A DNA stretch of 64,000 bases, from positions 620,001 to 684,000 of the forward strand of contig JAWWUD010000060.1 of the NCBI GenBank assembly GCA_033964015.1, read 5' to 3'. The stretch's first letter is position 1. Every line of letters starts with the position of its first letter. A program made the translations under genes and the position numbers. The notes under the pieces were generated by a model, which saw nothing but the letters and a program-made list of their open reading frames with translations, did not search any database and was not told where the DNA came from. Positions 21,029 through 55,305 of this stretch are shown piece after piece. The DNA comes from Scolanthus callimorphus (taxonomy: Eukaryota; Cnidaria; Anthozoa; Actiniaria; Edwardsiidae).

Positions 21029-21086
21029 ATGAAGGCGTTTTTCCTTGTAGCTGTCTTTGGAGTCTTTCTGTTTTCCGCTATTGAAG
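21029..21086 (+). CDS. Gla gene exon 1: signal peptide
   Basis: [19 protein letters not shown]: one basic residue, then a hydrophobic core, a standard secretion signal. The ATG context is GCAAAATGA. The donor GTAACA leaves phase 1. Confidence 0.8.
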
Positions 21087-24000
21087 GTAACAACATTCTG
21101 CTTTTCAGATATAAGACCTCCGCTCCAGACGGATTCCTGGAAGGGGCGATGTATAAATTTGGCAATTTTCGCTAGTAACGGAAAGGAAAGGGTTGGGTAA
21201 TTTGAAGTTTTCTTATAGTGTGTGTGACATATGCAAGTACGTCCTTTTAAAGTGCATATCAAGCCTGAGAGGAGACAACGTGAACTGAAAGTTGTGCTTG
21301 AACAAATATGTATGTCAAAAAAATTGCTTGCATATCTTTTTTGGTTAACGAGATATGCAATATCAATGTTTTATGTTTATCGTTTTTAGATTTGTAACCT
21401 GCAAAATGTAAGGCGTATTCGTAGTTTACGCTGATTTCCTGTAGCAACGTGTTGTTCTTATAAACAACTTTTTGTTATCGCCAAATCCGTAGTTATTTTA
21501 AGCGCATTTTTAAAACGTCTCTTTTGGTTTTTGATTTTTTTTCCTGTTACGCCAGTAAAAATCTAAGCCAAGTAGAATCTTGCCGATCATGTCTAAAACT
21601 ACACCCGATTGCCCAAAGCGACCCCGAGTGATAATAATACATACATAGAAAATTGAGTTTATTTTCAGTTAGTTATTTCTTATTTTCAATCTATAAAACA
21701 ATTTCTACATTTTATTTTATTTTTTTTATTTTATTCTGCTTTGCCCGAGGACCGAGAAATCCTCACAGAGCGAAATCAAAAAAAGTTTTAAGTGAATCTA
21801 GCTATTCCAAACAGAATTATACATAAAACATTGTTGGCCTCTTTTGCCCTTGTCTTGTTGTGACGTCATTTTTTGCTAATTTGCATAAGTAAAACTCTTC
21901 AATATCTCTGAAACCAAAAGAGCTATGAACGCGAAATAAACAGCATTCTTCCTTATTTTGAATGTGCAATAAAATAAGCCATTAAAATTTCAGCCTTGAG
22001 TAGCACTTTAAGGAATGGGCACTATTTGGCGTGCGTCCATCCACTTCTGAATGCACGCGGATAGTTGGGGGAGCACGAAGGTAGAGTAAGAGATGCTCGA
22101 GGCGCAGCCGAGATCATCTCTAGCTACCTGATTGCTCTCCCAACTATCCAAGTGCAAGGATTTAAAAAAAGGCACTTTGCTTCCAACGAATTTCCTGAAA
22201 CTTCGTTAGCACTTAGTCCAACTGAATTTAATATGATTAACGGAGTTTCGTTCAAAAATACCAGCAACTTTTTTTTTGCAACTTTTTTTTTTGCGCGGGG
22301 TTGATATCTCAAGGGTGCCCATTTAAGCTCAGATAATATTAAAAGTATTCATGCTAATGGAGATCTGATAAACCGTACATATTGCCAAAAGATACCTGCT
22401 TACATTATCCAAGATTTAAGTTCATAGCGAGTATATTTTAAAAGTTGTAGACGAAAATATATTTTCGCGAAATGCGCTCTGACTTTCGCATGAGTCACCT
22501 TAAACCTTCATTTCACATGTGATCTCAGTCCAGCACAGGGAGCCCGAACTACAGATCTTAATTGCGTTTTTTCCCTTTTTTAGGGAAGCTCTCCAAAAAA
22601 TAAGTCGTACTAGAAGTAATGTTAATATGTCTTACTTCTCCGGTTCAAGTCGACGCATTTTGTACCAGGTTTAGCACTATTTTAATAGACTTCGAATATG
22701 CAATTTAAAAACCTATCGATCAACTTTGCTCAATTTTTGTTGGATTGAAGTTCGCGACATTTACAAAGGCCAATCCGAACGCCTGCTCAGTTGAATCTTA
22801 AGACGCCCAAAAAATTCAACTGTGTTGGTTGTGCTTCTCTTGTTCATGGTCTTTTGGTTTTTCACTGCATCTTTCATGCAAATTTGTATCCTTCAACCGA
22901 TTATAAAAGTATTAAATATGTTGTTCATTGTCAAGGCATTCTCGTACCCAGAGTTCAATGGCTCGTTTGCTCGCAGGGGAGCTCTAGGGACATCCATTTG
23001 ACGGCCGTCGCTGATTTTGAGCGTTGGAGCATGCGCTGAAAGGTTTTCTCTCAGCAGCTCTGAATTAAATTTCGCGCATGCGTCAGTGGCTGTCACAAGA
23101 GCCTCCCTCGCGAGGTTACGAGCCGGGGAGCTCTGGGTACGAGAATGTTGTCAAGGAGAATAAAGATAAGGACAAATGACTATAGATAAAGTAGCTACTA
23201 AAAAGCGAAAAATAAAACTGAAATGAGCGTAATTAATAATTATGAACCTATTTTTCTTTTGATTACTTTATGAAGCCGTTAACAGCGACTCAATTGGGGA
23301 CAAAGTTGACATACAAGCGGACGAGGCAAAAGATTTCAACAAGCCTTTATCGCGGGCGCGCCGCGGTATTTATCATGAGTGCTACAATGAGGGATGCAGT
23401 TTTGAAGAAGTAGAGGAAGTCATGGGGCGCACTGAACAAGCGGTAAGATTTCCCTTTCTCAAGACTTGAAGTTCATTTATTCATTTACTTCATTTACATT
23501 TGCATTTACAAAAGAAATTTATTCATTTACATTTACACACAAAACTGCGAATGGTGCAAAGAAATGTTAGGAACGCTCCGTTTTATGGAATGCCTCCAAA
23601 TGTCGTTTCAAGAATGCGTCCATCAGAAAAAACAAACTCCACCAGGAAAGTCCTACGGTGATACGGTTCTACAGGTCAAAAGAAAAACAGTTATCGTTTG
23701 TACCGCGCTTCACGCACATGAAGAATGATCAATTCGACATTTGCGGCGCGCCTTGCGCGCAAAAAAGAATACAACTACATGGTTTGCTAACTATACACAG
23801 AATTGATTATCATCAAACTTTTTCCGAGGCTTGATGATGAAAGTTCCTTATCAAAATCAGCGCGCGCTTTGCGCGCGACGAAAGACGTGCAGTGCCCTTT
23901 TTGCTGTATTAGATGAAATAGGGATGGAAGGGGGCACGAAAACTTTTAACAGCTGTGAAGGGAATCACGTTAATAATAGTACTTTCAGAGGGGGTTCACT

Positions 24001-27000
24001 TCTTTTAGTGTCCGTGTATTTCCCATGACCCCCCCTCCCCTGGAAATAAATAATGACCGGTCCCCTTACATTTACACTTTTTAGTGATGTTTTTCAGCTT
24101 CCATTTCTCCTACGAGCCTCACTGTACGAGCCTAAATAATTTCTGCCACCTTGCCCTGATTACCCATGATGCACTGAGAGCTCGGACTTCTCTATTCGTG
24201 ACATGCTTTTCATTTCTAGTATGAGTACTACTACACCTACACCTGCAACAAGTTCAAAAAAAATTGTAAAGGTAAAAACAACATGATCAACATATCACCA
24301 ATATTTATAGAGAGTGTACAGAAACAGGCCATGAGCGTTATTTTTCCCGACATTCCATATGCGCTCGAGTTGGCAGGTCTCGACCCGTTATACTTACGGC
24401 GATATGATGCTTGTAAGAACTTTGTAATTAAGTCTAAGAACACTATTCATGTTTTACACAAGCCAACGGTGCTTGAGCGCACACGCAACTTGAGGTCAGG
24501 ACATCAGTATGTCCAGCGCACACTAGGCCGAACAAATCGGTTTAACAATTTTGTCTCTGTTAAGTATCAAATGTTGAATTTGTAATTTATTATATTTGAT
24601 TGAATGACCTCTCCTGTAATTCAGGCTCCGCCTGCAATGGGTTTTGAATTAAATGATTTATTGATTGATTGATTGATACCACAACGCGCGTTTCTCGTGT
24701 TCTGATTGGCTCTCAGGCGCGCCCAAAAGCACCAATGAAAACATTGTTTGGCTGCTCGCATAAAGCCATTTGATCGTGCGCGCCCTGTTTCTGTTTTTAT
24801 TTTGTTGTGATATAAAACAAATGTCATCTGAGCGCAAAGGATAATGGGCGAAACTAAAGTGCTCCTGTTTGATCTGAATTCAGACAGTTATCGAAACCAC
24901 ATGTAAAATCATTAAATTTCAGCGCATTTCTAAACATTTGTTTCTTATATTTTACAGAAATTCAAAAAAGTATTTGCCCATACTCGCTAGGTTGAACGTT
25001 CAAACCACTGCGTCCGTTCCCGTTCCCGGAGACGCCATAGCATTTCCAAATATCCTTTGCTAATTTTGTTTTTCACTCTCTTGCAGTAAAATGCATCTAT
25101 CGGAAAGACTGCAGTTTCGGAAACTGGGGGCACTGGAGTGGCTCTGGAAATGGAAGTCCCGGGTGCTTTTCTCAGAAACGCTACAAGCCGTACCGTTACT
25201 CTTTGCAAACCCTCTACCAGAGATGGAACTGCAATGGCTTACACACGACCTGCCCTTCTCCAAGTGCGGAGAGCAGGCTCTACTGTAAGTTTCCCAGCTA
25301 GCATAAGTCACTTCTATCTTGTTCTATGTTTTGAAGTGGCCTCTGCACACAAGACACAGTAAAATAAAAGAATGCAAATGCAGTCTGAACAAAAATAGCC
25401 TCAGGTCGCAAGGAACTTGAGGCTGAACCTGAGGTTGCCTGTTGAATACGTATTAACGGTACAGTGAAGCGACCCTTGTGGAAATTTCAAAGTTGCACAT
25501 GAATATACCATGTGGAAATTCCCCGGGGAAATTCCAAGATCGAACACAACAACCCCAATGTAATTCCAGAATCCAAAATAGAACAGCCAATTGTGGACGA
25601 TTTTATGTTGTTTTGTATAGGTATTTGCCAAAAGGCTTTGTGCAGAGAAGGCACGTGGTCGACATGGCAGGGAACACCCTCACAGGGGGAATGCGCTTCG
25701 CAGACTAGGCAGAAGCCTTTCCACATCACGTGGACAACTCAACATCAAATCGGCTCTTGTGACGGCATCTCGAAAAAATGTAACTCACCTTCGGTGGACT
25801 TACAACGCATGTGTGAGTACAGAATATAGGCTAATGTTGTTTACATCTTGTTGGGACCCTATGAATTGTTGACCCAACTGGCGCTCAAGCGTAGAATGTT
25901 TCCCACACATCAATATTATTTAGACCTAGAAAAAATCAAAGGTCCCGAGCAAAATCACAGGTCCCGCACTCAAGCGGAAAAGGTCTATCCAGATCATGTT
26001 ATGATATACACCTAATTAAAAAAAGGTTGATGTTTGGTGTTTGGTCTTTCAATTATAGCACGAAACAATGGAATTCCTTGCTTCAGTGACCACGAAACAA
26101 AGGCGTTCAATGACCAAAGACCAATGACCAAAGCAACCTCTTCTGAATTAGGTGTATTCCTTTGGGTGAACTTTTGTCAGTTCTGCACATACACTTGTGC
26201 AGTCGTCTGTATGAGAATTCTTCCTGTACATTTACTATCCCGCCGTGTGATGAGCTCTTTCTGTATAAATTCAAATATCCTGTCCCTTTCCTCAGTAGTT
26301 ACTCACCTCAATTTTTAGCGAGAGTCATATTCATGAAGTTATATAGTCGAAGCTCTCTGTGCGACCGCTCTCGTAAGCGACCAGCTCCCATAATGACCAA
26401 TTTCCCGAAACCCCGTTTGAAATGTCACATAAACTCTGTTATTTAAAGCTCTCGTAAGCGACCGCCTTATCGATGCGACCAGCTCCGTTAGCGACCACAA
26501 TTTCAAATCACCAACAGAGATTTTCTATTGTTTTTAAGCTCTCGTAAGCGACCACAGTACTTTTTGTCTTTAAAACATCAGTCATCACCTCATAAATATC
26601 TAAACTGATACAAGCTGCACCGGTGAAATGCTATTTTCTATGTACATATTTGCGGTTGTCTATTCTTAATTAAAGTCGGGAAATAAATCAAACTATTTTA
26701 AGCATTAGTATCACATGATATTTTCTATATTTATTGTACTAAGCTCTCGTAAGCGATCGTAAGCGTTCAAGTAGGAAGCCACTTGGTGGTCGCGTACGAG
26801 AGCCGTTCTCGTAACCGACCAGCTCCGTTAACGACCGCAATTTTCAGTTCCCGAGGTGGTCGCATACGAGAGCTTCGACTGTATTCCTCTTTAGGTAGTT
26901 GTCCCCGCGCTGTTTGTTCTCTGAATAGCTGGAGCGTTTGGCAAGGTTCCGTGTCGCAGGGGTCATGCGCTACTCAGAGCAGGACCAGGTCTTATTCCAA

Positions 27001-30000
27001 GACCATCAGCTACGAGATGCATGCAGACTGCTCCGGTGTGAAGAGCTCGTGCCCTGCTCAGCAGTCGGAATCTAGAAAGATGTGTGAGTATACATTGGTA
27101 ATCGAATCATCTTAAGGATACACGGTATTCGGAGTTTCCTTCACAAGAGCGGTAAAACCAATCACAAAGCAATAGACCGATCCCTATTTTGACGATAGCT
27201 CCGCCCACTCATAGCAAACAATAAGAAGTTTTCCCTACGGAATTCAAAATGTCCGAGCAACAAACTTGAATATCGAAGATTTTTCAATAATTATTCAGCT
27301 TTTCAAAATAAAATTATAAAATCCAAATTGCATGCAACAACTTCTAACACCTCCCTGCAATCGGTGTCTTTCCGCGCTCTATGCCAAAGATAAAATTTGG
27401 CTTGTCCGACGTAGCAACAGTAACTAGGGGTATAACAATGAATGCGGGATCGGTGAATTACACCGATTCTGAATAAAACGTAGGAGTAAACCCGGTGCAC
27501 ACTAGAGCAGATTTCGTATGACTGTGAAAAGTGCCGCGGTACGGCGCGGTACTGTCGCGGTGGCGGTACGTTACCTGGCCTTCTGTAAATGGAATGAAAT
27601 CGCCACTGAAATCGCGTAGTCGCGGTAATGTCACGGTCACGGCGCGGAACAACTTTGTCGCGGTACTTTTCACAGTCATACGAAATCTGCTCTAGCGACA
27701 TAAGGACGTTATGTTGCTACGAAAAAAGCACGAAAAAAAACTGAAATCATGAATATTTTCCATGGATCATCATTAGATTACTTCACCAAAGCTATCTCAC
27801 CTCACCTCGCCTCGCCTCGCCCACATCACATCACATCACAGCACGGCACAGCACAGAACAGTCTAGTTTTGCTGATCGATTCAGCTTAGCAGCTAATGAC
27901 CTATTTTACTGCTTACAGGTAGTTGCAAGTATGCCACATGCAAACTAGGGGAGTGGTCAGAGTGGGAACCTAAACAGCTGGACCAGGGATCGTGTGGACA
28001 AAGCCAGTCACGAAAAAAGAGTTATACAATAACATGGGCGTACCAGAGTCACCAAGGAAACTGTCCTTCGTTGCCGCAGAAATGTCCTGACCCAGTTGCA
28101 GAGCAGCGACAACAATGTAAGCCATTAAGAGTTCATTACTAAGATTAAAAATCTCCCATATCAAGTCTCATGAAAAATGAAAAAAAAAGCCTCTTGTGTT
28201 TTGCAAATTGTCCGGACGCAAATCTATGACTTTCATTCTTTTGGCCTAAGAGTACCAATCGATTTAGGTCTCTTCCCATCAGCGACTCGCAGATAAGCAA
28301 TACCGGTGTAGGACATTGCTATAGGCCGATCCTTGTTTACATACTAGCGCGCATGCGCGAAATGTCTGGGGCAGAAAGAAAAACAAAATGGCGGACGCTT
28401 TGAGCGCTCCGTCACAAACAGGCGCGATTTCAGGCAAATCTGACGGTTATTTGGATAGTTTGGTACCGGATGACAGGAAGAGGTACAAAGAAAAGCTCAA
28501 CGTTCACGTTGGTGATACTTTAGAAGCATTTCCTAGTCCGTACGAGCTTTGGGACGTCAAAGGAGTTTGGGACGATTCGCCTGCAAACTGGCCGAATGTT
28601 TCATACGGAGACATTTATTCCTACTTGGTTGATACCCCTGGCCCATTCACGAAAGAAAAGCTGAAGGCCCACAAAAGCTTAGAGGCATACGACTATTTTG
28701 TCTCAAGGAAAGTCGGGCCAGTGTCTGGTTTCACTGGGAAACCGAATCCGACTGGGTACGTGTTGTTGAAGGCAGATGTGCGACCCGGGCAAGCTGAGTC
28801 CGTTAAAAATTCACACCTCGCTTGGGTGATATGCACAGCGACGGGGGAGATTACAGTCGGCCACTGTGATTGCAAAGCTGGGTAAGTAAAACCAACACCA
28901 TCCAATGAATCGAGCAGTGGTCTTGTTTGTTTACAATGCGTATATTTAACTTGAGTATTTTTATACATAGCCTCGGAGAAACCTGCAGCCATGTTGCTGC
29001 ATTGTTATTCAAGGTCGAGGTGGCAGTTCGAGTTGGCCTGACAACTACAGCATGCACAAGTGAGGCTTGCAGGTATATATTGTAAATCAGACTCTCCTTA
29101 TGGTTCATATTTTGCCTGTGGAAATATTGGTAAATGAATAAATTGTAGGTCCCCTTCACATATAAAATTTTTCATGGGAAATGTCCACCTGTGTTTTGAC
29201 ACAATTTCTTCCTTTTTGTTTGTCCAACAGGTGGAACAGGGTCTTTGGGTCCAACTCCCTGACTGCACCTGCTGAAGAAATCGACTTCAGGCCGGGCAAG
29301 AAAACAGAAGTCATGCAAAGAGGATCTGAACCCAAAGCAGCTCGGTCACCACTTGCTGCACTGCAGGAGATGAAACATACATAGAAGCTTATTCAGGATT
29401 CTTAACAACTCTTCATGAAATCTGTCCGAGCGCCTGCATCTTCAAATCTTTACCCCGTCTGGACCCAGAAGAAACAGATACAGCTAATAGCCAAACAGAT
29501 TATAGTGAACATGGTACAGTTGCTCGAGAAGAACTGTTATTACAATATTTAATAAGCTTGTGTTGTTGTTGTTGTCAGCTTGTGTTGTTGTTTGATGGGT
29601 TTCAGGCCATGCAAGCAGAGTTTCTCTGTCCCTAGTTCACATCATGAATGGGGGTGAACAATGTGAACTGAGGGGGAAAAATACTTGTATGACCCTGAAA
29701 CCCATCAAAATAACAGTGCAGTCTGAAAAGTGGGTTGATTTTATTTTATTTTTTTATTGAAAAATTCTGTTGTTTTATTAATCACCATTGGCATGACAGG
29801 GAGGTCATGTTTCTATTGGGAGTAAAATTTTCAGTATGGTTTTTTTGGGGTCAAAACTTCCAGTAGGCTTGTTAGCCATCATGCAACACAAGGTCTCTTC
29901 CATATGCTGAAGCTATTTCCAGAAACATCTAAAAAAGAAAAGCCTGGTATCTTGGGGGGTATAAAACTTTGGAAGCAGGTATTTTTGGAGGGACAAAATG

Positions 30001-42000: not shown

Positions 42001-45000
42001 TAGTTTGACGTCTTTCAACCATTGGTCAAAGAAAACCGTTTGGTTTACTCAGCGTCATATGATACAGAATACTCTTGTTGGGATGAAATCCTGAGTAAAA
42101 TGGATATAACCATTTCGGTCCCGGGGAGGGGGAGGGGGGTACTTGAAGGTTAAAATGGGCCTAGGCCTAGGCATGACCGTCGGGAAGACCGAATTTCCAC
42201 CCTGAAAAATACATGTCAGAAAAAGAAAACCCACCCTAAAAATACTCCTCTGTCCTAAAATACCTTCTTCAATGTACCGTTTCATCCGGCGGATTAGAGC
42301 AAATTTTGGAGGAAATTGCGCATTTTAGGCTATAGCTCCAATTTTTTGCCAGGTGATAGTTTTCAATGTATTTTTAAATCGTAGATATGGAGGCACGCTA
42401 GAATTCTTTCGTAGCGAGAGCTAGAGAGGTTTTGGGGTGAACTATTGTTTAGCTCAATAGCAGCCATTTTGAATACTTTGTTATTCAAATGAGGTTTAGA
42501 CCTTCCTATTGCGAACTTTCAAGTTGTTCTCTAGACTGCACAGCCATAGCAGCTCAACATTTGCTAATTCTGAACTATGGATTGGTTTGACTGACTTCGG
42601 TTGAACGTTTCCTTAGAGTTTTTGGTGATTATTAAATGTCAGGACCACTTGATTGGGAATGCTTATGATATATATTGTAAAACAATATAAGCCTGACTGA
42701 GATTTGATGAAATGTTTCAAGAATGAACAACAAATTCTAAAAAAATATCGAGATAATTGGTACCTCATGTGTCGAATGTGTAAAAAGAAGCTTGTCTCTG
42801 AAATTTTCACATGATATTTTCTACCTAGTACTCTGCTATACTTCATAAACACGGACGATAGAAGATTTCACTAAGTGCCGCAGAGCTCATGAATAACAAA
42901 GAATTCAAAGATGGTTGCCAATGGCAAAACAATGGTTCACATTAAAACTGTTCTAGCTTTCGCTACGAATAAAATTTTGCGTGCCTCCATATCTTATCTT
43001 CAATAAACTACTAAAAACTATTGACATGCAAAATTTGGTGTCTTTGGCTAAAAGTGCACAATTTTTACGCTAATCCGCCGGACTATCAGTGCAAAGAACC
43101 CTTAAAAAATGCCGCGTTTTCTTCAACGTACGGATTTCGTTCAAAAAACCCCTAGAAAATACCGAATCGCCGAATTTCTCCCCTAAAAAATACGACGGTC
43201 ATACCTACCATCCCCGGGAGTTCGGTTTTGATAGGGTACCTCATGTGGTCAAAAATTCGTCTTTGCCACATTCGCCTTTGTCACGCGCCGCCATACACAA
43301 ATACAAATACGTTTACGCTCTGTTGTCAAGTTAATCCTCCTTGTGCTGTTATCTTTCTTGATAGGCCAGTCCGGAGGTGGAGGTCACCAGATATTTACAA
43401 CTCCTACACCGCTTCCTACTGTCACCACAGTTGCCCCAACCACTGCATGTAAGTCACTATTTTGATACCAATTCATAATAATATTCACCACATCTACCTC
43501 AAAAACTGTTTAAGCAAGTAAATGTTCCGTCCGGAGATGGAGGTCACCAGATATATACAAGTCGTACGCCGCATCCTACCGTCACCACAGTTGCCCCAAC
43601 CACTGCAGAAGTCACTATTTTGGTACCAATAATAAAATTCACCACAGCTCCCCCAAACACTGCTTGAGCAAGTTATGTTTTTGAGGCTTGCTTGTAAAGT
43701 ACCCATCAAATATATAGAGAGAATAAAACATGGGTGCGCGAAGATATGGAATTTATCTTCGAGTGGGATATAAAATTGAACACGAGAAGATGATTTCCAT
43801 GTCTTCTAGCGTCCATGTATTATTATGTTTATTATATAAACCGTAGCATTGTATTTTTTTAAAAACAACGGGATGATATTTGAAAAACGCACCACATGCA
43901 AATTTGAAAATTTCATGTGTGGAAAGCATTGAGGCACGAGATTAGAAATCCTTGTAAAATAACGCCGGACCCTGAGACCTCCATATGGCGCCTCCTTGAG
44001 AACCCTGTCCCTCTTACAAATCTTAATGAATTTATCACCAGATATCAATATACAGTAAAAAAAAACATATTATAAGAACCCAGCCATTTTAGAACGTACA
44101 TGCAGGAATTTGCCATTTAAAACGGTTTTATTGCACCTAAATCGATAAATCCTGCTTTAAGACAGATCGAGGATAATTGTAAATACTAAAGCAGGAACAA
44201 TAGGTTTTTACTAACGTAACGTGTTGCTCGTTTAGTTGTTCCAGCCACGTATGTACAGATTGGATGTTTTAAAGATGGCAAAGAAGGAGATGGGCGTGTC
44301 CGTACCTTTCCCCATCTTATCGAGAACTTGAGAAATGAAATCACGAACTGGAATGATTTGAGCAACGTCATCCAGAAGTGTGCAAACATAGTGCGGGAAC
44401 TCAGGTATTGAGCCATGTTCGTAGACCCAGAGCTCCCCGCCCCGTCTCCTCGCAAGGGAGGCTCTGGTAACATCCATTTGAGGGCCTTCGCTGATTGGCT
44501 GATTTTTTTAATGTTGGAGCATGCGCAGAAAGTTGTTTCTCTGAACGGCTCTTTATCAAAGCTCCATATCAAGAACAAAGTGCTGTCGTTTTTATGGAAG
44601 TTCCGCGAGGGCTGCCTGTGGTGTTTAAATTTCGTCCCAGCCCCCTCTTTAGGGAACAAAAACAAAATGGCGACCAAAAGAACGATGTTTTTCGAGTATC
44701 TGCATGTTTTGGTAAATTCTCATGCGTTTTGTCGCTAAGGTACGAGGAAAAATACTTACAGACCTTCCAAATAAGGTAAGGAGGAATTTCCTAATAAGGA
44801 AGTTTTGCAACGTAGGGAAATCGACAGTTTTTGGCGAAATTTCCTTGACCAATGGCTGTAAGCAGAACCTCCTCTGTGAGAAGACGAGCAGAGCTCTGGG
44901 TTCGAGAATGGTGTTGAGCTATGTTATCAATGCCCTCACTAGGGAAACTCGCCTATAATATGACATTACGAGATTGCGGAACAGACCACTCTTGTCTCCA

Positions 45001-48000: not shown

Positions 48001-51000
48001 AGAGAAGAATTTTAGGTTTTCTCTTTGTAACTAGCGTATTCTTTTCCTTGCGCGCGTTTGTTTGTTTGTTTTTCTTGAGCGCGCGCATCTCATGCTTTGT
48101 ATATACACGTTATCATCTTTGTAACGGTTTTAGTAGCCGCCCTGATGAAGGATTGAAAGTAAAATCCGAAACGTTGGCATCTCTCGGCTCCTGTTTTGTC
48201 TGCTTTTTACCTTATTTACTTATAGGATCAAATTTAACCTTATGCATGTACCTGTATTTCTATGCTACTTTCGTGTGTCTGCGCGTTGGATGCTACGACG
48301 CGAATTTTTTTCCGGTAGCTGCTCCCAGATTATGACGGTTATTTTCAAGAACACACACGCCCGTGGAGGAGAAAGGAATGCAGAAAAAAACATGAGTTCG
48401 AGTGGGCAAAATTGTAGACTTTTTTTCGAAGCACACCACGGTTTGGTGAAACCCGCAGTAGCACCTATCCTAAACCAGCCATGAAGGTGGTCGATGCCTC
48501 CTGGCGACTACTTTAGGCTCATTACGATATCTGATGTTGATCTAGGCTCGAATACTTTGGCATCCAGTTCTATGGGGAATGTTGGAGTGACAGGGAAGCG
48601 ACATGCAAATGGGGTTACGCACGAGATGGGCTGCATGTGAAGGATAACAGCTCGAGTGACTGTTACAAAGGCGTGGGAGGCTTACGGACCAATATGGTGT
48701 ATCGAATAGAGGATATGCCAGGTAAATATCACATTACCATAAGGTTAAAACTAGAAATTCCTGCGAGGAAGTAACGTGCTTGGAGCATTGAGCGGGGCTG
48801 CTAGTCTGTCTGCAAAAGGTTTTTTCAATATTTGTCATTCAACGTCAAGGGGGCATATGAGATTTTCAAGGTCCAACGTAAGTTTCGCACAAAGTCAGCC
48901 ATTTTTGTCAGTCCACTCGAAGAATAGACCTCCTCGGCTTGGGCGTAATGTTTTGCCCATTTCAGATCACGTGGCATCCGCATGAGGATTCTATCTTTGT
49001 TTCATAAAATGCTTCCATTTTCATATATCCTTCGGTGCGTAGCAGAAAAAGAGAGAGAGAGAATACTCATGGGAATTCCTCGTGATCTGAAATGGGAAAC
49101 ATTTTGCCCAAGCCGAGGAGGTCTATTGCATACATGTCCAGTGTTAAATAACATCAGTCTTTGTTTTATTCAGTCTGTTCTTGTATCCAGCTAATATCCT
49201 ACTTGAGAGTAAATTAAGAAAGCAATCAGTGCCTCCGTTTTGCCACAAAAGCCCGAATAAAAAACATATCTCGAACATTTCATTCTCGTACCCAGAGCCC
49301 CTCGCTCCTTCGACCATACATGAGTCGAGGTTGTGTCGGACAGAACGAACCCAAAGTTCACAGATATAAACGTGCGCTGGGTTAAAAAAAACAGGGCTGG
49401 TTTGATAAGGAAACTTTTTTCTGACAAAATTAGTGTGCTGGGAGGCCTAGCGACCTCCCAGGAATTAGGTCACTATATTTCATTATAGCGGAGCTCCCGC
49501 GGGCGCCCCATAGCTACATGAAGGAGGAAAGGAAACAACACAAAAGTGTATATGCATCGACCTGTTTTGTGATGGACTTCCGGTTTATTTACTTCCGTCC
49601 GTGGTTCCGTCGTCGCACAGGCAACCCATGACCAGTTTTACAGCGGAAGTAAAAAGGTTTATATCTGCGGAAGGGATGAAACTCAGACAACCAAACTTGG
49701 GTGAAGTTGTCTAAGTGGCAATGGGAGTGCGATGGCATAGTCACGTGGAATGACGTCATCGATGACGTCATCAAACGCGTGAAGGTTTATATCTTTGGAA
49801 GGGATGAACCTCGGACAACCAAACTTGGGTGAAGCTGTTTGAGTGGCAAGGGGTATGTAATGGCATAGTCACGTGATATGACGTCATCGATGGCGTCATC
49901 TAATGAGAAAAGGCTGATATCTTTGGAAGGGATGAACCTCAGACAATCAAACTTGGGTGAAGTTGTTTAAGTGGTAAGGGGGAACCTCAGACAACCAATC
50001 TTGGGTGAAGTAAGGGGGGTACGATGGCATGATCACGTGGTATGACGTCATCGATGACGTCATAAAATCAGAAAATGTATAAATCTTGGAAAGGGATGAA
50101 CCTCGCACAGAACCAAACTTGGTGAAATTATCTAAGTGGCAAGGATGATGGTAGTGTTTGGTCACGTGGTATGATGATGACAGGCTATGTACAATGGCTG
50201 CCTTTTGTCTCATTAACACAGAAAAATATGTAACCGGGAGCTCCGCTTTTAGCCAGTGGCTAAATATATATTAAGTTCTGATTCAAAGTCATGAGCAAAA
50301 GCAGCCCTATTGTATCGATGTGCTGAAAAACGTTGTGTTGTAATAGCTCTAGACAACAAATGTTGGTTCATTTAGGGTCATGTGGCCTTAAACAAACTCA
50401 ATAATTCCCCTTACGGGCAATAACTGCCATTGCCAGTCCGGGAAAGTATTATATTTGCCACGAGTCGAACTTCTCTTGCGGTACTAATAAATAAATTTGG
50501 TCCAGGCCTTATTAAAACGGCGGTAAATGGAACAACAATGCAATCTAGCTTTTGTGTTGTGTTTGTGTAGCGTGTTCTTCGGAGCTAACGTTTGAAACGT
50601 CAGTAAGCAGTGGAGCCGTGAACAGTGGCAACGATGTCTGGTGCGCGGGTAATACCGACCGCTTCCAGTGGATCACCATCGAACTCGACAAACCGATGAA
50701 AATATCAGGTCAGACAAGTAGTGTGTTACAACTAAAACCGTTGCATCGCGACCCACGTTTTCAAAACATCCAATTATTATTTTTTTTACTTTTGCTGTTC
50801 CACCAAGCAAACTATCTGAGCCAATGAAACTCTTGCGCCTAGTGCAGTCAAATGGCTTTCCTCTGAACTAAAACGTACAAGACATCATCGCGACGGAAAG
50901 CAGGGCGACTGTAGTAGACGAAAAAGGGCAACAATCTGATCGTGTCATGAGGTCTGACTAAATGATTTCACCATTTGGACTCAGCATGCTGTTACCATCG

Positions 51001-54000: not shown

Positions 54001-55305
54001 AGGCAGGCAACTTCCTTTACGGAGGCCTCCGCTTCAAGCCATTTGGAAGCAAGAATTTTGAAAACATCTTTAAAACCACTAAGGCAGCGGCCGGAACAAA
54101 TGTGTCTCCATGCACAGACCAACTTTCAGAATCATCCGATCATCACGGGCCGGGAAAGTATATTTTTAGTGAAGCACATGCCAATCGTCCCATGATATGT
54201 ACAAAAAAGCCCAAATAAAGGAATCCCAAATATGCATGACCGTTGGAATAGACCTTATCGGGTTTTTTCGTATTTCCAAATTAGGCCACGGAAAGAAACT
54301 CAACCACTACAGCTGCATTGGTAAATTGTGAGGTTTTCTTCTGCAGGTGTGGGGACGCAGGGTGGTACCCAAGACAGTTGGGTGACATTGTATAACGTAG
54401 AATACAGCGAAGAGGGCGAGGCCTGGGTTCCATACCAAGAGAGCAGAGAGCCCAAGGTAAGCCCTTAGATCTGAATCGTTATTCTCCTAAGTAAAGTAAC
54501 ACACTTTTCTACATCTTAGATATGAGAACTTGATGTTTGACCAATTCATCATCATTCAGTTGATCATCCTCTCCATCCGACTGATCTTTTAATTTTGATA
54601 TGAATTAATGTGTCAGGGGAAAAGTATAAATGTTGAAGAAAGCGCGTTTGTTCCCATGCAAAAAAATTAGGAATTGTCCTTTGAGAAGATTGAATTGTCC
54701 CAAGGCCCAGCCAGTGTTTATTTGGTTCTTCGGAGAGGGGGTTGATTGAACTAAAAAGAAAACCTAATTATTACACCAAATGAGGTACTACAGATATTTT
54801 TCAGTATATGTATAATCGTGTTTAGCAGAAACCCACTCGCATACTATCAAGCATCTTGCAATCTGATTGGCTCCGCTATACTCGCTATCTATCACGTAAT
54901 ATAGATAGCGAGTAGAGTAAACGCTAGCGCAAAACTTCCTAAAACCATGAAAATAAATGCGTTTAGCAACAACTCGAAGGTAGTATGCTAGTGCGTTTCT
55001 GCAAAAACAATTAGACTACTCGTTCTCGTTTCCTATGAGTCAAATAGTCAACTCGGCGCTTAACGCGCCTCGTTAACTATCTATTGACTCATATAAAACT
55101 CGCACTGGTAGTCTAATAGGTAATTATCTCCGAGATTGACAATATGTTTTCTGCTTCAGACATTCGCTGGTAACTCAGACCAGTTCACACTGCAGACATA
55201 CTGGCTCAAAACCCTATCAACGCACGCTTCCTTAGGTTCAAGCCTCTCTCGTGGAAGTCCGTCAATATCTGCATGAAGATCAGAGTGTATGGCTGTAGCG
55301 TCTAG
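21029..55305 (+). CDS. Secreted Gla-TSR9-WSC-like-discoidin protein
   Basis: Eighteen exons (listed individually). The 17 upstream exons keep phase exactly, and the literal product is about 934 residues. Order: signal peptide, propeptide ending RARR, Gla domain, aromatic stack, nine TSR-like domains, a Thr/Pro linker, a WSC-like domain, then F5/8 type C. The Gla Glu residues would need a vitamin K-dependent carboxylase and calcium; discoidin domains bind phospholipid, glycans or collagen. No transmembrane segment is seen, so an extracellular membrane- or matrix-associated adhesion role is inferred, not shown. Anthozoan mineral matrix is a possible site. The last exon has a frameshift at an A run (55208-55211): the literal frame stops at 55274-55276, while the homologous C-terminus continues in another frame to 55305. 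Introns are full of transposons. The overall architecture is not one I can name. Confidence 0.85.
21087..23275. other. Gla gene intron 1
   Basis: Contains the 22937-23147 element and an end fragment of the 19673 family near 22440-22502. Otherwise AT-rich with no feature seen. Confidence 0.5.
22937..23147. mobile_element. MITE with 9-bp target duplication, CATTCTCGTACCCAGAG family, copy 1
   Basis: Inverted ends CATTCTCGTACCCAGAG; flanked on both sides by TTGTCAAGG (22928-22936 and 23148-23156). A 9-bp duplication is typical of Mutator-like transposons. It shares an inner segment (ACATCCATTTGA-GGCC-TCGCTGAT) with the copy at 44414-44910. A lone end of the family lies at about 49283-49300. Confidence 0.8.
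23276..23442 (+). CDS. Gla gene exon 2: propeptide and Gla domain
   Basis: A 167-bp exon, phase 1 in and 0 out. The propeptide ends [10 protein letters not shown], which resembles the carboxylase docking and furin-type cleavage region of vertebrate Gla proteins (N-K-x-L-x-R-x-R-R). The mature domain starts GIYHEC and continues [15 protein letters not shown]: the Cys pair and CSFEE core of Gla domains with their surrounding Glu residues. Seven Glu lie in this exon after the cleavage site. Compared with clotting factors the N-terminal omega loop (ANxFLEE) is shorter. Confidence 0.85.
24220..24271 (+). CDS. Gla gene exon 3: aromatic stack
   Basis: Encodes [17 protein letters not shown]. It occupies the place of the aromatic stack exon that follows Gla domains in vertebrate proteins. 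Phase 0 in, phase 1 out. Donor GTAAAA lies directly beside a LINE fragment. Confidence 0.8.
24284..24680 (+). mobile_element. LINE 3' fragment with TTGA microsatellite tail
   Basis: The frame 24283-24585 matches the C-terminal region of CR1-like reverse transcriptases ([16 protein letters not shown]...[11 protein letters not shown]...TNRFNNFVS). It ends with TTGATTGATTGATTGAT at 24659-24676, a simple-repeat tail of this group. The rest of the element is missing (5' truncation). Confidence 0.7.
25087..25284 (+). CDS. Gla gene exon 4: TSR-like domain 1
   Basis: Phase 1-1, 198 bp. Reads [18 protein letters not shown] with the W-x2-W motif, then the Cys-Asn-Gly/Thr-Thr-Cys-Pro end shared with the other repeats. 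The central basic strand is QKRYKPYRY. Confidence 0.8.
25621..25812 (+). CDS. Gla gene exon 5: TSR-like domain 2
   Basis: Phase 1-1, 192 bp. [11 protein letters not shown], then [15 protein letters not shown] and a final RM-Cys split across the intron. Confidence 0.85.
26343..26883. mobile_element. Inverted-repeat element with GCTCTCGTAAGCGACC subrepeats
   Basis: Ends share AGTCGAAGCTCTC in inverted orientation. GCTCTCGTAAGCGACC or close variants recur at about 26369, 26450, 26537 and 26741, with inverted variants near the right end. It finishes 12 bp before the acceptor-exon boundary of exon 6 (26895), so it supplies most of that polypyrimidine region. Confidence 0.65.
26895..27083 (+). CDS. 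Gla gene exon 6: TSR-like domain 3
   Basis: Phase 1-1, 189 bp. [34 protein letters not shown]-Cys. Confidence 0.85.
27503..27694. repeat. MITE-like element, TAGAGCAGATTTCG ends
   Basis: TAGAGCAGATTTCGTATGAC and a further 10 bp are inverted exactly at 27665-27694. The inside is rich in CGCGGTAC/GTCGCGG motifs. Confidence 0.7.
27919..28116 (+). CDS. Gla gene exon 7: TSR-like domain 4
   Basis: Phase 1-1, 198 bp. [30 protein letters not shown]; ends ...EQRQQ-Cys in place of the usual RRM-Cys. Confidence 0.85.
28388..31207 (+). pseudogene. Transposon SWIM zinc finger / YqaJ-type nuclease protein
   Basis: Exons 28388-28881, 28971-29072, about 29231-29513, 30306-31207. ATGGCGGAC start. Exons 1-2 give a SWIM finger (HCDCKAG...[12 protein letters not shown]-x-C-x-n-C-x-H). 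The last exon is a YqaJ/lambda-exonuclease fold: [22 protein letters not shown] and YYFQVQGQM carry the D...E-x-K catalytic set. In exon 3 the frame stops at 29382, yet a family-like continuation ([14 protein letters not shown]) runs in the next frame to the phase 1 donor at 29513. So one base appears to be lost near 29365, or a small intron lies there. Otherwise well kept. Its job in transposition is unknown. Confidence 0.75.
31879..32052. repeat. tRNA-derived hairpin element inside the transposon
   Basis: On the minus strand GGATAGCTCAGTTGGTAGAG (31934-31953) is a textbook tRNA A-box/D-arm sequence. The arms (AACTAG-x3-TTTGCCTACCA, then AAACTTG) are inverted at 32010-32052. The B-box part is weak, so this is a SINE-like or MITE-like derivative and not a working tRNA gene. 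Confidence 0.55.
32100..36661 (-). pseudogene. Broken THAP/DDE_Tnp_4 transposase gene
   Basis: Minus-strand exons, 5' to 3': start ATG at 36661 ([14 protein letters not shown]...), interrupted 36507-34917 by a nested element; THAP second half to 34867 ([14 protein letters not shown]); 34755-34264 (acidic linker, coiled coil); 34062-33909 (helix-turn-helix); 33521-33138 and 32768-32622 ([20 protein letters not shown]); 32237-32100 ([15 protein letters not shown], stop). The THAP Cys-x4-Cys and Cys-x2-His ligands are visible. Damage: a one-base loss near 36589 in THAP, the nested insertion, and a further frame change near 33322 in the DDE domain. So this copy cannot make its own transposase. 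Confidence 0.75.
34917..36507. mobile_element. Nested foldback element with CAA target duplication
   Basis: Begins TAGACTAGACGAA and ends with its reverse complement. The arms, about 350 bp each (34917-35275 and 36140-36507, imperfect), include ATGAGGCATTTTTTAGTAAA and AAAATGGCGGATCCAAGATG. CAA lies on both sides (34914-34916, 36508-36510). Removing the element and one CAA rejoins the THAP codons so that ...RSKP runs into WTPSADD in frame. No long reading frame in the 860-bp centre; the ORF beginning MATRKFGF on the minus strand is made from its left arm. Confidence 0.85.
36806..37881. other. Intron remainder before Gla gene exon 8
   Basis: Single-copy looking AT-rich DNA. An ATGGCGGAC motif is at about 36864, but no credible exon follows. 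Nothing else seen. Confidence 0.4.
37882..38073 (+). CDS. Gla gene exon 8: TSR-like domain 5
   Basis: Phase 1-1, 192 bp. [34 protein letters not shown]-Cys. First repeat after the 9.8-kb transposon-filled intron, still in phase. Confidence 0.85.
38455..38822. mobile_element. Inverted-repeat element, TTTTAGGG family
   Basis: GATAGGGGGTGCTCGTCGTA at the left and its diverged inverse (CGACGAGCACCCCTATCAC) at the right; several TTTTTAGGGGTA motifs between. Confidence 0.55.
38913..39107 (+). CDS. Gla gene exon 9: TSR-like domain 6
   Basis: Phase 1-1, 195 bp. [34 protein letters not shown]-Cys. Confidence 0.87.
39814..40005 (+). CDS. Gla gene exon 10: TSR-like domain 7
   Basis: Phase 1-1, 192 bp. 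[34 protein letters not shown]-Cys. Confidence 0.87.
40392..40580 (+). CDS. Gla gene exon 11: TSR-like domain 8
   Basis: Phase 1-1, 189 bp. [28 protein letters not shown] (one residue spacing shorter), EARIK-Cys. Confidence 0.85.
41045..41151. repeat. Short palindromic MITE, copy 2
   Basis: TTCATATATGGTACACTATA with inverted partner ending TAATGAAGGA; diverged copy of the 13339-13442 element. Confidence 0.6.
41263..41653. repeat. MITE-like element, TTAAAGGGGCTGTGTCACG ends
   Basis: Left end TTTAAAGGGGCTGTGTCACG; right end is the reverse complement with three mismatches. About 390 bp, non-coding. Confidence 0.65.
41767..41955 (+). CDS. Gla gene exon 12: TSR-like domain 9
   Basis: Phase 1-1, 189 bp. 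[33 protein letters not shown]-Cys. The most diverged repeat. Confidence 0.82.
42118..43222. mobile_element. Outer inverted-repeat element, TTTTAGGG family
   Basis: Starts with a CCCGGGGAGGG run and GCATGACCGTCG; mirrored at 43190-43222 (CGACGGTCAT...CCCCGGGAG). CCTAAAAAATAC motifs occur near both ends. It is split by the 42285-43082 element. Confidence 0.6.
42285..43082. mobile_element. Nested inverted-repeat element, TCCGGCGGATTAG ends
   Basis: TCCGGCGGATTAG at 42285 and its exact inverse ending at 43082. Imperfect arms of a few hundred bp include GGAGGCACGC and GCGTGCCTCC. It sits inside the 42118-43222 element. A related piece (GGCGGCCATTTTGAA...TTGTTATTCATGAGG) is at about 46000-46035. 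Confidence 0.7.
43365..43448 (+). CDS. Gla gene exon 13: Thr/Pro linker
   Basis: Phase 1-1, 84 bp. [20 protein letters not shown] then TVAPTTA: a flexible, probably O-glycosylated spacer between the TSR array and the WSC-like domain. Confidence 0.75.
43526..43677 (+). pseudogene. Dead tandem copy of linker exon 13
   Basis: A diverged direct duplicate of 43365-43521, exon plus intron start. The copy has lost the AG acceptor and, at the former donor, GCATGTAAGT has become GCAGAAGT. So it cannot be spliced as the original is. Confidence 0.7.
44236..44404 (+). CDS. Gla gene exon 14: WSC-like domain, first half
   Basis: Phase 1 in, 2 out, 169 bp. [14 protein letters not shown]...[18 protein letters not shown]. 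The GC-(F/Y)-KD start and the KCA helix resemble WSC-type Cys domains common in cnidarian and mollusc extracellular proteins. The donor GTATTGAGC forms the left target duplication of the adjacent element. Confidence 0.78.
44414..44910. mobile_element. MITE with 9-bp target duplication, CATTCTCGTACCCAGAG family, copy 2
   Basis: Ends CATGTTCGTAGACCCAGAG and the inverse of CATTCTCGAACCCAGAG. Flanks GTATTGAGC (44405-44413) and GTGTTGAGC (44911-44919) differ by one base. It begins 9 bp after the end of exon 14, so the target duplication contains the splice donor itself. Confidence 0.8.
44989..45335. repeat. Possible inverted-repeat element
   Basis: A left segment TCTTGTCTCCAGATCCTTCG...CAGGCCAGCG is matched inverted near 45285-45330 with several mismatches. 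Long open frames exist on both strands, but none is recognisable. Confidence 0.35.
46718..48224 (-). mobile_element. Penelope-like element, truncated, with inverted termini
   Basis: A minus-strand Penelope-type RT C-terminus and GIY-YIG domain sit between inverted terminal segments: 46718-47040 and 47900-48224 are inverse copies of about 320 bp. They include TATAAGTAAATAAGG, CAACGTTTCGGA and the GCGCGCG/(GTTT)n stretch. Inverted or direct pseudo-LTRs are typical of this class. The catalytic RT core is absent. Confidence 0.75.
46913..47913 (-). pseudogene. Penelope-like RT C-terminus plus GIY-YIG endonuclease
   Basis: The frame 47913-46996 carries the end of the RT region (VDFLDVKVI...[11 protein letters not shown]) and the start of the GIY-YIG module ([18 protein letters not shown]...RFRNHK). 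From about 47130 the homologous reading continues in another frame ([14 protein letters not shown]...ISVSDL-like) to 46913. So there is one frameshift. The 5' RT core is missing. Confidence 0.75.
48546..48721 (+). CDS. Gla gene exon 15: WSC-like domain, second half
   Basis: Phase 2 in, 1 out, 176 bp. [20 protein letters not shown]...[19 protein letters not shown]. It completes the Cys set begun in exon 14 (GC, KCA, GEC, ATC, DCY). The phases fit only each other. Confidence 0.8.
49487..50247. mobile_element. Element with AGCGGAGCTCCCG ends and tandem CRE-palindrome core
   Basis: AGCGGAGCTCCCG at 49487-49499 is inverted exactly at 50235-50247. Between about 49660 and 50180 lie four imperfect tandem units of about 110-130 bp (see separate entry). 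Located in the intron between exons 15 and 16. Confidence 0.7.
49660..50180. repeat. Tandem minisatellite with TGACGTCA palindromes
   Basis: Unit: GGAAGGGATGAACCTC-GACA-CCAAACTTGG...GATGGCAT-GTCACGTGG-ATGACGTCATCGATGACGTCA. The 20-bp palindrome TGACGTCATCGATGACGTCA is perfect in units at about 49751 and 50043, and altered by one base (GATGGCGTCA) at about 49880. Each unit also has CACGTG or a variant. Confidence 0.75.
50571..50708 (+). CDS. Gla gene exon 16: discoidin (F5/8C) domain, part 1
   Basis: Phase 1-1, 138 bp. [20 protein letters not shown] then [25 protein letters not shown]-x-IELDKP is a clear F5/8 type C strand pair (usual W-x2-VDLG); the starting Cys pairs with one at the very C-terminus in this family. 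Confidence 0.8.
51229..53734 (+). mobile_element. 5'-truncated Tx1/L1-type LINE with 10-bp target duplication
   Basis: AAATACCTAA stands at 51219-51228 and again at 53735-53744. The insert ends in a short A tail. It contains only the RT and C-terminal half of ORF2, sense to the host gene, in the intron between discoidin exons 16 and 17. Confidence 0.85.
51269..53507 (+). pseudogene. Tx1/L1-type reverse transcriptase remnant
   Basis: RT motifs [24 protein letters not shown] (about 51537) and LFADDLTIF (about 51837), then the L1 thumb region and a C-terminal RVT zinc finger (CSFCNND...PEHFLYYC, about 53131). The endonuclease half is absent. At least three frame changes (about 51720, 52620, 52800) and an in-frame stop at about 52939 break it. 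FADD replaces the YADD of the LINE at 6-10 kb. Confidence 0.85.
53858..54218 (+). other. Open frame with a predicted membrane segment
   Basis: An open stretch of about 118 codons with no ATG start, preceded by CCTCAG. It reads a hydrophobic run ([15 protein letters not shown]) then a basic cytoplasm-like segment ([10 protein letters not shown]), with an AATAAA at the stop. As an alternative last exon it would need entry in phase 2, but exon 16 leaves phase 1. No polypyrimidine tract precedes it. Probably a chance frame or a remnant. Confidence 0.2.
54347..54456 (+). CDS. Gla gene exon 17: discoidin domain, part 2
   Basis: Phase 1 in, 0 out, 110 bp. [20 protein letters not shown] then [10 protein letters not shown]. 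The W-V-T-x-Y-x-V-x-Y-S pattern is diagnostic for F5/8 type C domains. Confidence 0.88.
54835..55002. repeat. MITE-like element
   Basis: GCAGAAACCCACTCGCATAC with inverse ending GTGCGTTTCTGC; a smaller inner inverted repeat CTCGCTATCTAT/ATAGATAGCGAG at 54879-54915. Confidence 0.6.
55010..55117. repeat. MITE-like element with ATGAGTCAA arms
   Basis: ATTAGACTAC at the left, GTAGTCTAAT at the right, with ATGAGTCAA-TAG and its inverse inside. About 108 bp, 42 bp before the last Gla gene exon. Confidence 0.55.
55160..55305 (+). CDS. Gla gene exon 18: discoidin domain, C-terminus, with frameshift
   Basis: From the acceptor, frame 1 reads [17 protein letters not shown], the expected domain continuation. 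After the AAAA at 55208-55211 the expected sequence ([10 protein letters not shown]...WKS then [10 protein letters not shown]) lies in another frame and ends at TAG 55303-55305. In the literal frame a TGA ends it at 55276, losing the closing Cys. One missing A in the homopolymer would explain the change. Confidence 0.8.

What the first reader, a model, noticed from the sequence alone, without database searches (positions are those of the whole stretch)
21029..55305. Cnidarian-type protein joining a Gla domain, nine TSR-like domains, a WSC-like domain and a discoidin domain
Seen: 18 exons with consistent phases spell signal peptide, RARR-ended propeptide, CSFEE Gla core, aromatic stack, nine W-x2-W repeats, linker, WSC-like module and F5/8 type C. 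Known: in vertebrates Gla and F5/8C domains both bind phosphatidylserine membranes, but on separate clotting proteins. Inference: a single non-vertebrate protein with both ends lipid- or calcium-binding suggests an extracellular bridging, adhesion or mineral-matrix protein. I know of no described family with this order.
Basis: partly seen in the sequence, partly recalled or inferred. Interest (0 to 1): 0.9.

Follow-up and report, generated by a model that had tools for sequence, protein, structure and literature searches.

The report
Anemone-coral protein with clotting-type Gla module
Sea anemones and stony corals share a secreted protein that carries a blood-clotting-type calcium-binding (Gla) module on a long chain of repeats ending in a discoidin domain, which suggests that this vitamin K-linked module is older than the split between corals and vertebrates.

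Summary
Eighteen exons at 21029-55305 spell one secreted protein: signal peptide, propeptide, Gla core, nine TSR-like repeats, linker, WSC-like domain, F5/8C. One correction: the last exon breaks frame near 55207-55213. Relatives in the same order occur in anemones (Nematostella, Actinia, Actinostola), stony corals (Oculina, Desmophyllum; Porites without the N-terminus) and on transcript-sized contigs, so exons 1-3 and 4-18 belong together. The Gla match is weak on the window alone (21.6 bits, cut-off 27) but firm for the family: window plus 10 orthologues all hit Pfam Gla, and their profile finds factor X at 8e-8. The exon 2/3 junction sits at the factor IX position and phase. The adjacent Glu pair, and probably the omega-loop, of membrane-binding Gla domains are missing, so 'both ends bind lipid' is not supported. 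Best reading: a calcium-dependent extracellular tether and candidate gamma-carboxylase substrate outside Bilateria. Carboxylation and the carboxylase gene remain untested; the genome-search tool did not complete. The papers searched gave no description of the family.

The parts
21029..21086 (+). exon 1: start codon and signal peptide ([19 protein letters not shown]), ends phase 1
   Evidence: no tblastn hit of its own
23276..23442 (+). exon 2: propeptide with conserved A-x-x-F and RARR (R49 ends at 23364), then Gla core G50-A75; phases 1 to 0
24220..24271 (+). exon 3: aromatic stack YEYYYTYTC and KFKKNCK; phases 0 to 1
   Evidence: no tblastn hit of its own
25087..25284 (+). exon 4: TSR-like repeat 1 (1-1 exon)
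25621..25812 (+). exon 5: TSR-like repeat 2
26895..27083 (+). exon 6: TSR-like repeat 3
27919..28116 (+). exon 7: TSR-like repeat 4
37882..38073 (+). exon 8: TSR-like repeat 5
38913..39107 (+). exon 9: TSR-like repeat 6
39814..40005 (+). exon 10: TSR-like repeat 7
40392..40580 (+). exon 11: TSR-like repeat 8
41767..41955 (+). exon 12: TSR-like repeat 9
43365..43448 (+). exon 13: Gly/Thr/Pro linker
   Evidence: no tblastn hit of its own
44236..44404 (+). exon 14: WSC-like domain, first part; phases 1 to 2
48546..48721 (+). exon 15: WSC-like domain, second part; phases 2 to 1
50571..50708 (+). exon 16: F5/8 type C domain, first part
54347..54456 (+). exon 17: F5/8 type C domain, middle; phases 1 to 0
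55160..55305 (+). exon 18: F5/8 type C domain, end. The reading frame breaks near 55207-55213; the conserved C-terminus (stop at 55303-55305) is in another frame

Best explanation
This is one gene for a secreted extracellular tether, kept as a single clear family in the hexacorals found here (sea anemones and stony corals). Its N-terminus is a divergent Gla module that shares descent with the Gla module of vertebrate vitamin K-dependent proteins. Inferred working: the propeptide recruits gamma-glutamyl carboxylase in the ER; up to eight Glu of the 35-residue core (six invariant) become Gla; a furin-type protease cuts after RARR in the window protein; calcium folds the core so that it grips an acidic surface. 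Without the adjacent Glu pair and, on the preferred alignment, without the omega-loop, that surface is more likely anionic glycan, matrix or mineral-bound polymer than inserted phosphatidylserine membrane. The nine TSR-like repeats are a spacer rod, possibly C-mannosylated at W-x2-W, and the WSC-like plus F5/8C end binds glycan, collagen or cell surface. Shown here: gene, order, conservation, homology of the module. Inferred: carboxylation, calcium binding, ligands, location.
For: Homology of the Gla module: of 28 PDB sequences listed for the window N-terminus (E 0.0008 to 6.3), 27 are named clotting factors and one, 9bvm, is labelled only 'Activation peptide'; of 45 listed for the family profile, 44 are named Gla proteins plus 9bvm, best factor X 8.1e-8; the window and 10 of 10 orthologous N-termini match Pfam Gla at E up to 1, best 4.6e-7. 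Gene structure: exon 2 ends after residue 75 in phase 0, which the ungapped alignment puts on factor IX residue 38. Published F9 numbers (PMC8911121 passages; arithmetic) give exon 2 = 164 and exon 3 = 25 nt, so F9 breaks after residue 38 in phase 0 if exon 1 is 88 nt (allowed range 86.6-88.0; 88 recalled). Window exons 2 and 3 are 167 and 52 nt with phases 1-0-1. Glu under constraint: 6 of 7 majority-Glu columns in the core are invariant against 8 of 56 elsewhere (Fisher p 0.00027), and 0 of 77 cells there are Asp against 33 of 743; the core has 11 rows and other columns up to 14, which favours the core a little. ExxxExC kept in 11 of 11 rows. Propeptide: one of only two hits of a 27-position profile is the propeptide of TMG2, gapless over 21 residues, E 1.3. 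One transcript: five ORFs of 927-948 aa running from signal peptide to F5/8C lie on contigs of only 2850-3253 bases (P0005, P0006, P0007, P0008, P0010), while the window gene spans 34 kb. Repeats correspond by position in 82 of 90 comparisons. Gene tree: anemones on one side with full support, the other nine rows on the other.
Against: No evidence that any Glu is carboxylated. The carboxylase gene could not be looked for: the genome search did not answer in 10 tries. The window's own Gla score is below Pfam's cut-off and, in the whole-protein scan, below a chance hit. Factor IX Glu positions 7, 8, 15, 20 and 33 have no Glu partner in the window protein (Gla positions of factor IX recalled). 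The RxRR site is found in the window and 4 of 10 orthologues only (P0001, P0002, P0004, P0009); P0006 has RVPR, P0003 SKR, and P0005, P0007, P0008 and P0010 have a rearranged stretch with shorter basic sites. The propeptide match alone is not significant, and the best factor X alignment instead puts ANxF on the mature factor X N-terminus; then a loop counterpart, though without the Glu pair, would exist. The structure model of the Gla and WSC regions is mostly under pLDDT 50 and says nothing. Junctions in other anthozoan genes were not looked at. The window copy has a broken last-exon frame.
Confidence: 0.62

Rival explanations
1. Gla homologue that is no longer (or never was) carboxylated: a small cysteine-rich acidic cap on a TSR-like adhesive protein.
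For: Omega-loop probably lost; five factor IX Glu sites without partner; RxRR missing in 6 of 10 orthologues with an N-terminus; weak Pfam score.
Against: Six Glu invariant with no Asp exchange, the ExxxExC motif kept in 11 of 11 rows, and a propeptide-like stretch with invariant A and F. An unmodified acidic cap would be expected to tolerate Asp.
Confidence: 0.25
2. Biomineral matrix protein: the Gla core binds calcium carbonate or its precursors in coral skeleton.
For: Present in stony corals (Oculina, Desmophyllum, Porites). Gla proteins of bone bind mineral (established knowledge). PMC12960093 (passage) says that coadhesins, thrombospondin and spondin-2 of corals were recorded in skeletal matrix proteomes; whether this family is among them is not said.
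Against: Conserved as well in anemones, which have no skeleton. A term search of the main text of one coral skeletal proteome paper (PMC9532382) gave no Gla, thrombospondin, coadhesin or SCO-spondin; its supplements were not seen.
Confidence: 0.12
3. Phosphatidylserine bridge like Gas6 or lactadherin, used to mark dying cells or particles for uptake.
For: F5/8C is the best-supported domain, and the fold search lists factor VIII C2 and lactadherin C2 among discoidin matches.
Against: No adjacent Glu pair of the omega-loop in any of 11 rows; the same fold search also lists collagen-binding DDR2, neuropilin b1 and CBM32 modules in the 50 rows shown.
Confidence: 0.1
4. Annotation chimera: exons 1-3 and 4-18 belong to different genes.
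For: Long introns and inserted transposon pieces.
Against: Same order on single transcript-sized contigs and in separately annotated genomes.
Confidence: 0.02

Closest known systems
Vertebrate Gla-domain vitamin K-dependent proteins (factor IX, factor X; transmembrane TMG/PRRG proteins)
   Same: ExxxExC core, CSFEE stretch, aromatic stack, basic-ended propeptide, signal / propeptide+Gla / stack exon order with phases 1-0-1 and the same Gla-internal intron as factor IX
   Different: No adjacent Glu pair and probably no omega-loop; no EGF, kringle, protease or transmembrane part; Gla followed by TSR-like repeats, WSC and F5/8C
Coadhesin-like anthozoan proteins (P0014, P0015; the name is my reading)
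   Same: TSR-like repeats clearly related (18 repeats hit by the family repeat profile below E 1e-4; one further row at E 1.5 dropped); F5/8C in P0014
   Different: They have VWA domains and no Gla label; their repeats keep the usual WSxWSxxCG form, this family has a longer insert
SCO-spondin (name given by NCBI to the Nematostella orthologue P0001)
   Same: TSR-type repeats in a long secreted protein
   Different: No other domain of SCO-spondin found in the window protein by Pfam; the name looks like a loose automatic match
Sym32 of sea anemones (PMC3141003, passages)
   Same: Proposed gamma-carboxylated secreted anemone protein
   Different: FasI domains with a periostin-like recognition motif; evidence there is indirect

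Membership tests
Gla-domain vitamin K-dependent proteins | Profile match to the Gla domain | tested here: met
   Window plus 10 orthologues, 11 of 11 at E up to 1, best 4.6e-7; profile to factor X 8.1e-8. Window alone 21.6 bits, cut-off 27
Gla-domain vitamin K-dependent proteins | ExxxExC motif and the Cys pair of the Gla core | tested here: met
   E54, C55, E58, C60 invariant in 11 of 11; motif meaning recalled
Gla-domain vitamin K-dependent proteins | Carboxylase-recognition propeptide | tested here: inconclusive
   Gapless 21-residue match to the TMG2 propeptide, but E 1.3; shuffle p 5e-5 to 0.007 per member, with the anchor chosen beforehand; rival alignment to the mature factor X N-terminus
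Gla-domain vitamin K-dependent proteins | Intron between Gla core and aromatic stack at factor IX residue 38, phase 0 | tested here: met
   F9 exon 1 length partly recalled; window gene only
Gla-domain vitamin K-dependent proteins | Gamma-carboxylated Glu and calcium binding | not testable with these tools
   needs protein chemistry
Gla-domain vitamin K-dependent proteins | Carboxylase gene in the same genome | not tested
   The genome search unreachable in 10 tries; PMC3141003 calls the carboxylase conserved throughout metazoans (passage), PMC4555119 reports VKOR paralogues in Nematostella (passage)
Phosphatidylserine-binding clotting-type Gla domains (subgroup) | N-terminal omega-loop with hydrophobic keel and two adjacent Gla | tested here: not met
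   No adjacent Glu pair at that place in any of 11 rows. On the preferred alignment RARR directly precedes GIYHEC, and TMG2 needs about 12 more residues in the same span (profile 5-60 on chain 4-71). On the rival alignment a loop counterpart without the pair exists. Not filed in this subgroup
Thrombospondin type 1 repeat | Match to Pfam TSP_1 | tested here: not met
   No hit at E up to 1
Thrombospondin type 1 repeat | Profile relation to a solved TSR | tested here: inconclusive
   Two F-spondin TSRs at 0.006-0.007 and a third spondin entry at 0.4 are the only three hits (profile of 20 repeats, six of them from P0014 and P0015); hence 'TSR-like'
WSC domain | Profile match | tested here: met
   8 of 8 orthologues given, best 1.3e-6; the one shown in full, P0002, has 24.2 bits against a cut-off of 27.8; window 0.0045
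F5/8 type C (discoidin) | Profile match above cut-off | tested here: met
   56.3 bits, cut-off 28.2; window copy frame-broken at its end
SCO-spondin | Its other domains (EMI, VWD, TIL, LDL-receptor class A; recalled) | tested here: not met
   none in the Pfam scan of the window protein at E up to 1

The most novel reading that the evidence does not exclude
The complete vitamin K-dependent module (carboxylase-recognition propeptide, Gla core, aromatic stack, with its intron) already existed in the common ancestor of cnidarians and bilaterians, and this hexacoral family is a native substrate of the anthozoan carboxylase, with a loop-less Gla core that works in adhesion and not in membrane insertion; on the Porites side of the corals the RxRR site was replaced and a new tryptophan-bearing N-terminus arose.
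Probability: 0.55. Interest if true: 0.85.

Novelty: new variant of a known kind. Interest (0 to 1): 0.72.

Why it matters
Invertebrates are reported to carry the carboxylation enzymes although they lack the vertebrate clotting cascade (PMC5578492 passage); what those enzymes act on in most of them is, to my knowledge, open (recalled). A conserved anthozoan protein with a homologous Gla module and the factor IX intron gives a concrete substrate candidate in laboratory species such as Nematostella, and would date the module before clotting, blood and bone. It also would separate an ancient calcium-binding core from the omega-loop, which may be a later addition for membranes.

Tried and rejected
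Chimera of two genes: rejected. Chance Gla motif: rejected. Recent tandem duplication of the repeats: rejected; the nine window repeats average 33% identity and pair by position with ten orthologues in 82 of 90 comparisons; the misses are repeats 6 and 7 in six coral rows. A near-copy of linker exon 13 at 43521-43607 was not included: the relatives with a linker have one. An alternative alignment puts the conserved ANxF stretch on the mature N-terminus ANSFL of factor X (first alignment) instead of on the propeptide; I prefer the propeptide because the TMG2 match is gapless through the basic cleavage site, but this is not settled.

Led nowhere: full-length structure model of P0002, mean pLDDT 57.1, Gla, linker and WSC regions mostly under 50; its PDB search lists discoidin-type and CBM32 folds in the 50 rows shown of 576 matches, no TSR among them. 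Profile search for more distant family members found one extra protein, P0016, labelled with ordinary TSP_1 (PF00090) and other domains (E 1.3e-7, not examined further). The region search with residues 18-160 of P0005 found 7 of 7 family members, but not the anemone ones, so its reach is short and it does not show that other Gla proteins are absent from cnidarians. Carboxylase gene search: no answer from the tool. Promoter scan and tRNA scan gave nothing and are of bacterial type.

Papers: read as passages only: PMC3141003, PMC4555119, PMC9532382 (39, no hits), PMC9643190 (42, plus one section, 46; the cell marks of its Table 1 are not held), PMC5578492, PMC3927609 (47, nothing of use), PMC8911121, PMC12097292, PMC12960093. 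Of the five papers holding both 'gla domain' and 'cnidaria' I opened two; the other three were seen only in the listing.

Full report
What is there. The window lies in a sea anemone-like genome: the closest protein found is from Nematostella vectensis (62% over 829 columns), and the gene tree joins the two with full support. Eighteen exons from 21029 to 55305 were rebuilt by hand and checked in a script. All 17 introns are GT...AG and all phases fit; nine consecutive exons (4-12) are 1-1 exons of 189-198 bases, one TSR-like repeat each. The translation gives a signal peptide (read by eye), a propeptide ending RARR, a 35-residue Gla core with eight Glu and no Asp, an aromatic stack YEYYYTYTC, nine repeats with W-x2-W, a Gly/Thr/Pro linker, a WSC-like domain and an F5/8C domain. 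tblastn with four relatives hits exons 2, 4-12 and 14-18 in order; exons 1, 3 and 13 gave no hit of their own.

One flaw. In exon 18 the reading frame breaks near 55207-55213. P0002, P0007 and P0013 align in one frame up to 55210 and in another from 55207 or 55213 to 55299-55302. Whether this is a sequence error or a damaged copy cannot be told here.

One gene, and a family. The protein search (5.8 billion sequences) returned 15 proteins. P0001-P0012 run collinear with the window protein at 46-62% identity, P0013 is a Nematostella fragment, and P0014 and P0015 are coadhesin-like. Named sources: Nematostella, Actinia, Actinostola (anemones), Oculina, Desmophyllum, Porites (stony corals). Five ORFs of 927-948 aa lie on contigs of 2850-3253 bases, most simply transcripts, since the coding part leaves almost no room for introns. 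Not all rows are complete: P0001 lacks most of F5/8C (P0013, also Nematostella, has it), P0003 starts after the signal peptide, P0004 ends differently, and P0011-P0013 lack the N-terminus. In the 13-row tree the four anemone rows fall on one side with full support; among the other nine, Porites groups with P0007, P0008 and P0010, and Oculina and Desmophyllum with P0005, P0006 and P0012 (the last two groupings are drawn open or fall short of a star): this fits vertical descent of a single clear family. Repeats pair by position in 82 of 90 comparisons. A profile search with the family added only P0016, E 1.3e-7.

The Gla module. The window N-terminus alone scores 21.6 bits against Pfam Gla, below the cut-off of 27, and in the whole-protein scan Gla (0.0045) stands below a chance FANCM hit. 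The precomputed Pfam domains name Gla in 1 of the 10 orthologues that have an N-terminus (P0001), so ordinary annotation mostly misses it. Yet of 28 PDB sequences listed for the window N-terminus 27 are named clotting factors and the other is labelled 'Activation peptide'; of 45 listed for the 11-row profile 44 are named Gla proteins plus that same entry, best 8.1e-8; and all 11 rows match Pfam Gla. Six Glu (E54, E58, E63, E64, E67, E77) are invariant; by the ungapped alignment they sit on factor IX residues 17, 21, 26, 27, 30 and 40, all Gla in factor IX (recalled). Majority-Glu columns are invariant in 6 of 7 cases in the core against 8 of 56 elsewhere, with no Asp in 77 cells against 33 in 743, as expected if the side chain must be carboxylated; the core columns have fewer rows, which helps them a little.

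Shared intron. Exon 2 ends after residue 75 in phase 0, which is factor IX residue 38. Two reviews (passages) describe F9 exon 1 as signal peptide, exon 2 as propeptide plus Gla, exon 3 as the end of Gla plus a hydrophobic stretch (PMC8911121, PMC12097292). Table 3 of PMC8911121 implies 164 and 25 nt for exons 2 and 3 and 86.6-88.0 for exon 1; with 88 (recalled) F9 breaks after residue 38, phase 0, then phase 1. The anemone gene has the same functional split, the same junction and the same 1-0-1 phases. I take this as common descent; the junction was not checked in other anthozoans.

Propeptide and the missing loop. The upstream stretch has an invariant A and F and, in the pieces I cut, a basic end. 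Searched alone against PDB it gives two hits: a Fur-type regulator (E 0.91, an 8-residue match) and the TMG2 propeptide, gapless over 21 residues (E 1.3). On its own that is not significant; as a hit to the very part of a Gla protein that binds carboxylase it is suggestive. If it is the propeptide, the mature core starts at GIYHEC and lacks the omega-loop of vertebrate Gla domains. The rival alignment (first hit) puts ANxF on the mature factor X N-terminus; then the loop has a counterpart, but the adjacent Glu pair is still missing in all 11 rows. Either way the main basis for phosphatidylserine insertion is not there. RxRR itself stands in the window and in P0001, P0002, P0004 and P0009; P0006 has RVPR and P0003 SKR. 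In P0007, P0008 and P0010, and separately P0005, sequences such as R-GWFKPELRHEC stand there, with RxxR or KR a few residues earlier: possibly a different cut and an aromatic N-terminus.

The other domains. Each repeat has six cysteines, the last count including the next boundary, and there is no Pfam TSP_1 match; a 20-repeat profile hits only F-spondin TSRs in PDB, at 0.006-0.007, with a third spondin entry at 0.4, and the 100-repeat family profile finds 18 repeats in coadhesin-like P0014 and P0015. I call them TSR-like. WSC is found in 8 of 8 orthologues given. F5/8C is certain, but its ligand is not predictable: the fold search lists membrane-, collagen- and glycan-binding relatives alike.

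How it most likely works. A secreted tether: a calcium-folded, probably carboxylated acidic head; a rod of nine TSR-like repeats; a glycan- or surface-binding tail. Four of the 13 tree rows are anemones, so skeleton is not required. A lead only: a coral larval proteome reports a protein called SCO-spondin enriched in planulae and in aboral tissue (PMC12960093 passages); the Nematostella orthologue bears that name, but identity was not checked.

What is known. PMC3141003 proposes gamma-carboxylation of the FasI protein Sym32 in anemones and calls carboxylase and VKOR conserved throughout metazoans (passages). PMC9643190 included the coral Stylophora; its searches with lamprey and hagfish factor VII and X domains yielded two Oikopleura proteins, and its best Gla hit for prothrombin was a tunicate protein (passages). 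None of the nine searches on this question (the tenth was about factor IX exons) showed a paper describing this architecture, as far as listings and passages tell; subscription journals are mostly not held.

Verdict. A real, conserved hexacoral family, undescribed in the searched library, with a Gla module homologous to that of vertebrates: a new variant of a known kind.

Noticed in passing
window 55160-55305: Apparent one-base frame break inside the conserved end of the F5/8C domain, seen against three relatives.
   Followed up: yes
window 43521-43607: Near-copy of linker exon 13 in the next intron; the relatives with a linker have one.
   Followed up: partly
window 30035-31207: ORF with a YqaJ-like recombinase domain (6.3e-18) in the 10-kb intron between exons 7 and 8, a likely mobile-element remnant; an ORF at 28325-28885 beside it had no Pfam match.
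   Followed up: partly
window 51221-52649: Reverse transcriptase pieces in two frames (RVT_1) in the intron between exons 16 and 17: a decayed retroelement.
   Followed up: partly
window 46996-48030, minus strand: ORF with a weak GIY-YIG match (5.4e-4) in the intron between exons 14 and 15.
   Followed up: partly
window 6270-10661, minus strand: Two adjacent ORFs: endonuclease plus reverse transcriptase (984 aa), and SAP plus GDSL-like lipase (478 aa): looks like a nearly intact LINE-like retrotransposon.
   Followed up: partly
P0005, P0007, P0008, P0010 N-termini: Rearranged cleavage stretch and aromatic N-termini (FFT, GWF, DWL, SWF) in four of ten orthologues with an N-terminus, three of them on the Porites side of the tree.
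   Followed up: partly
P0014, P0015: Coadhesin-like proteins share the TSR-like repeat; they too lack a precomputed Pfam TSP_1 label, so this repeat type seems under-annotated in anthozoans.
   Followed up: partly
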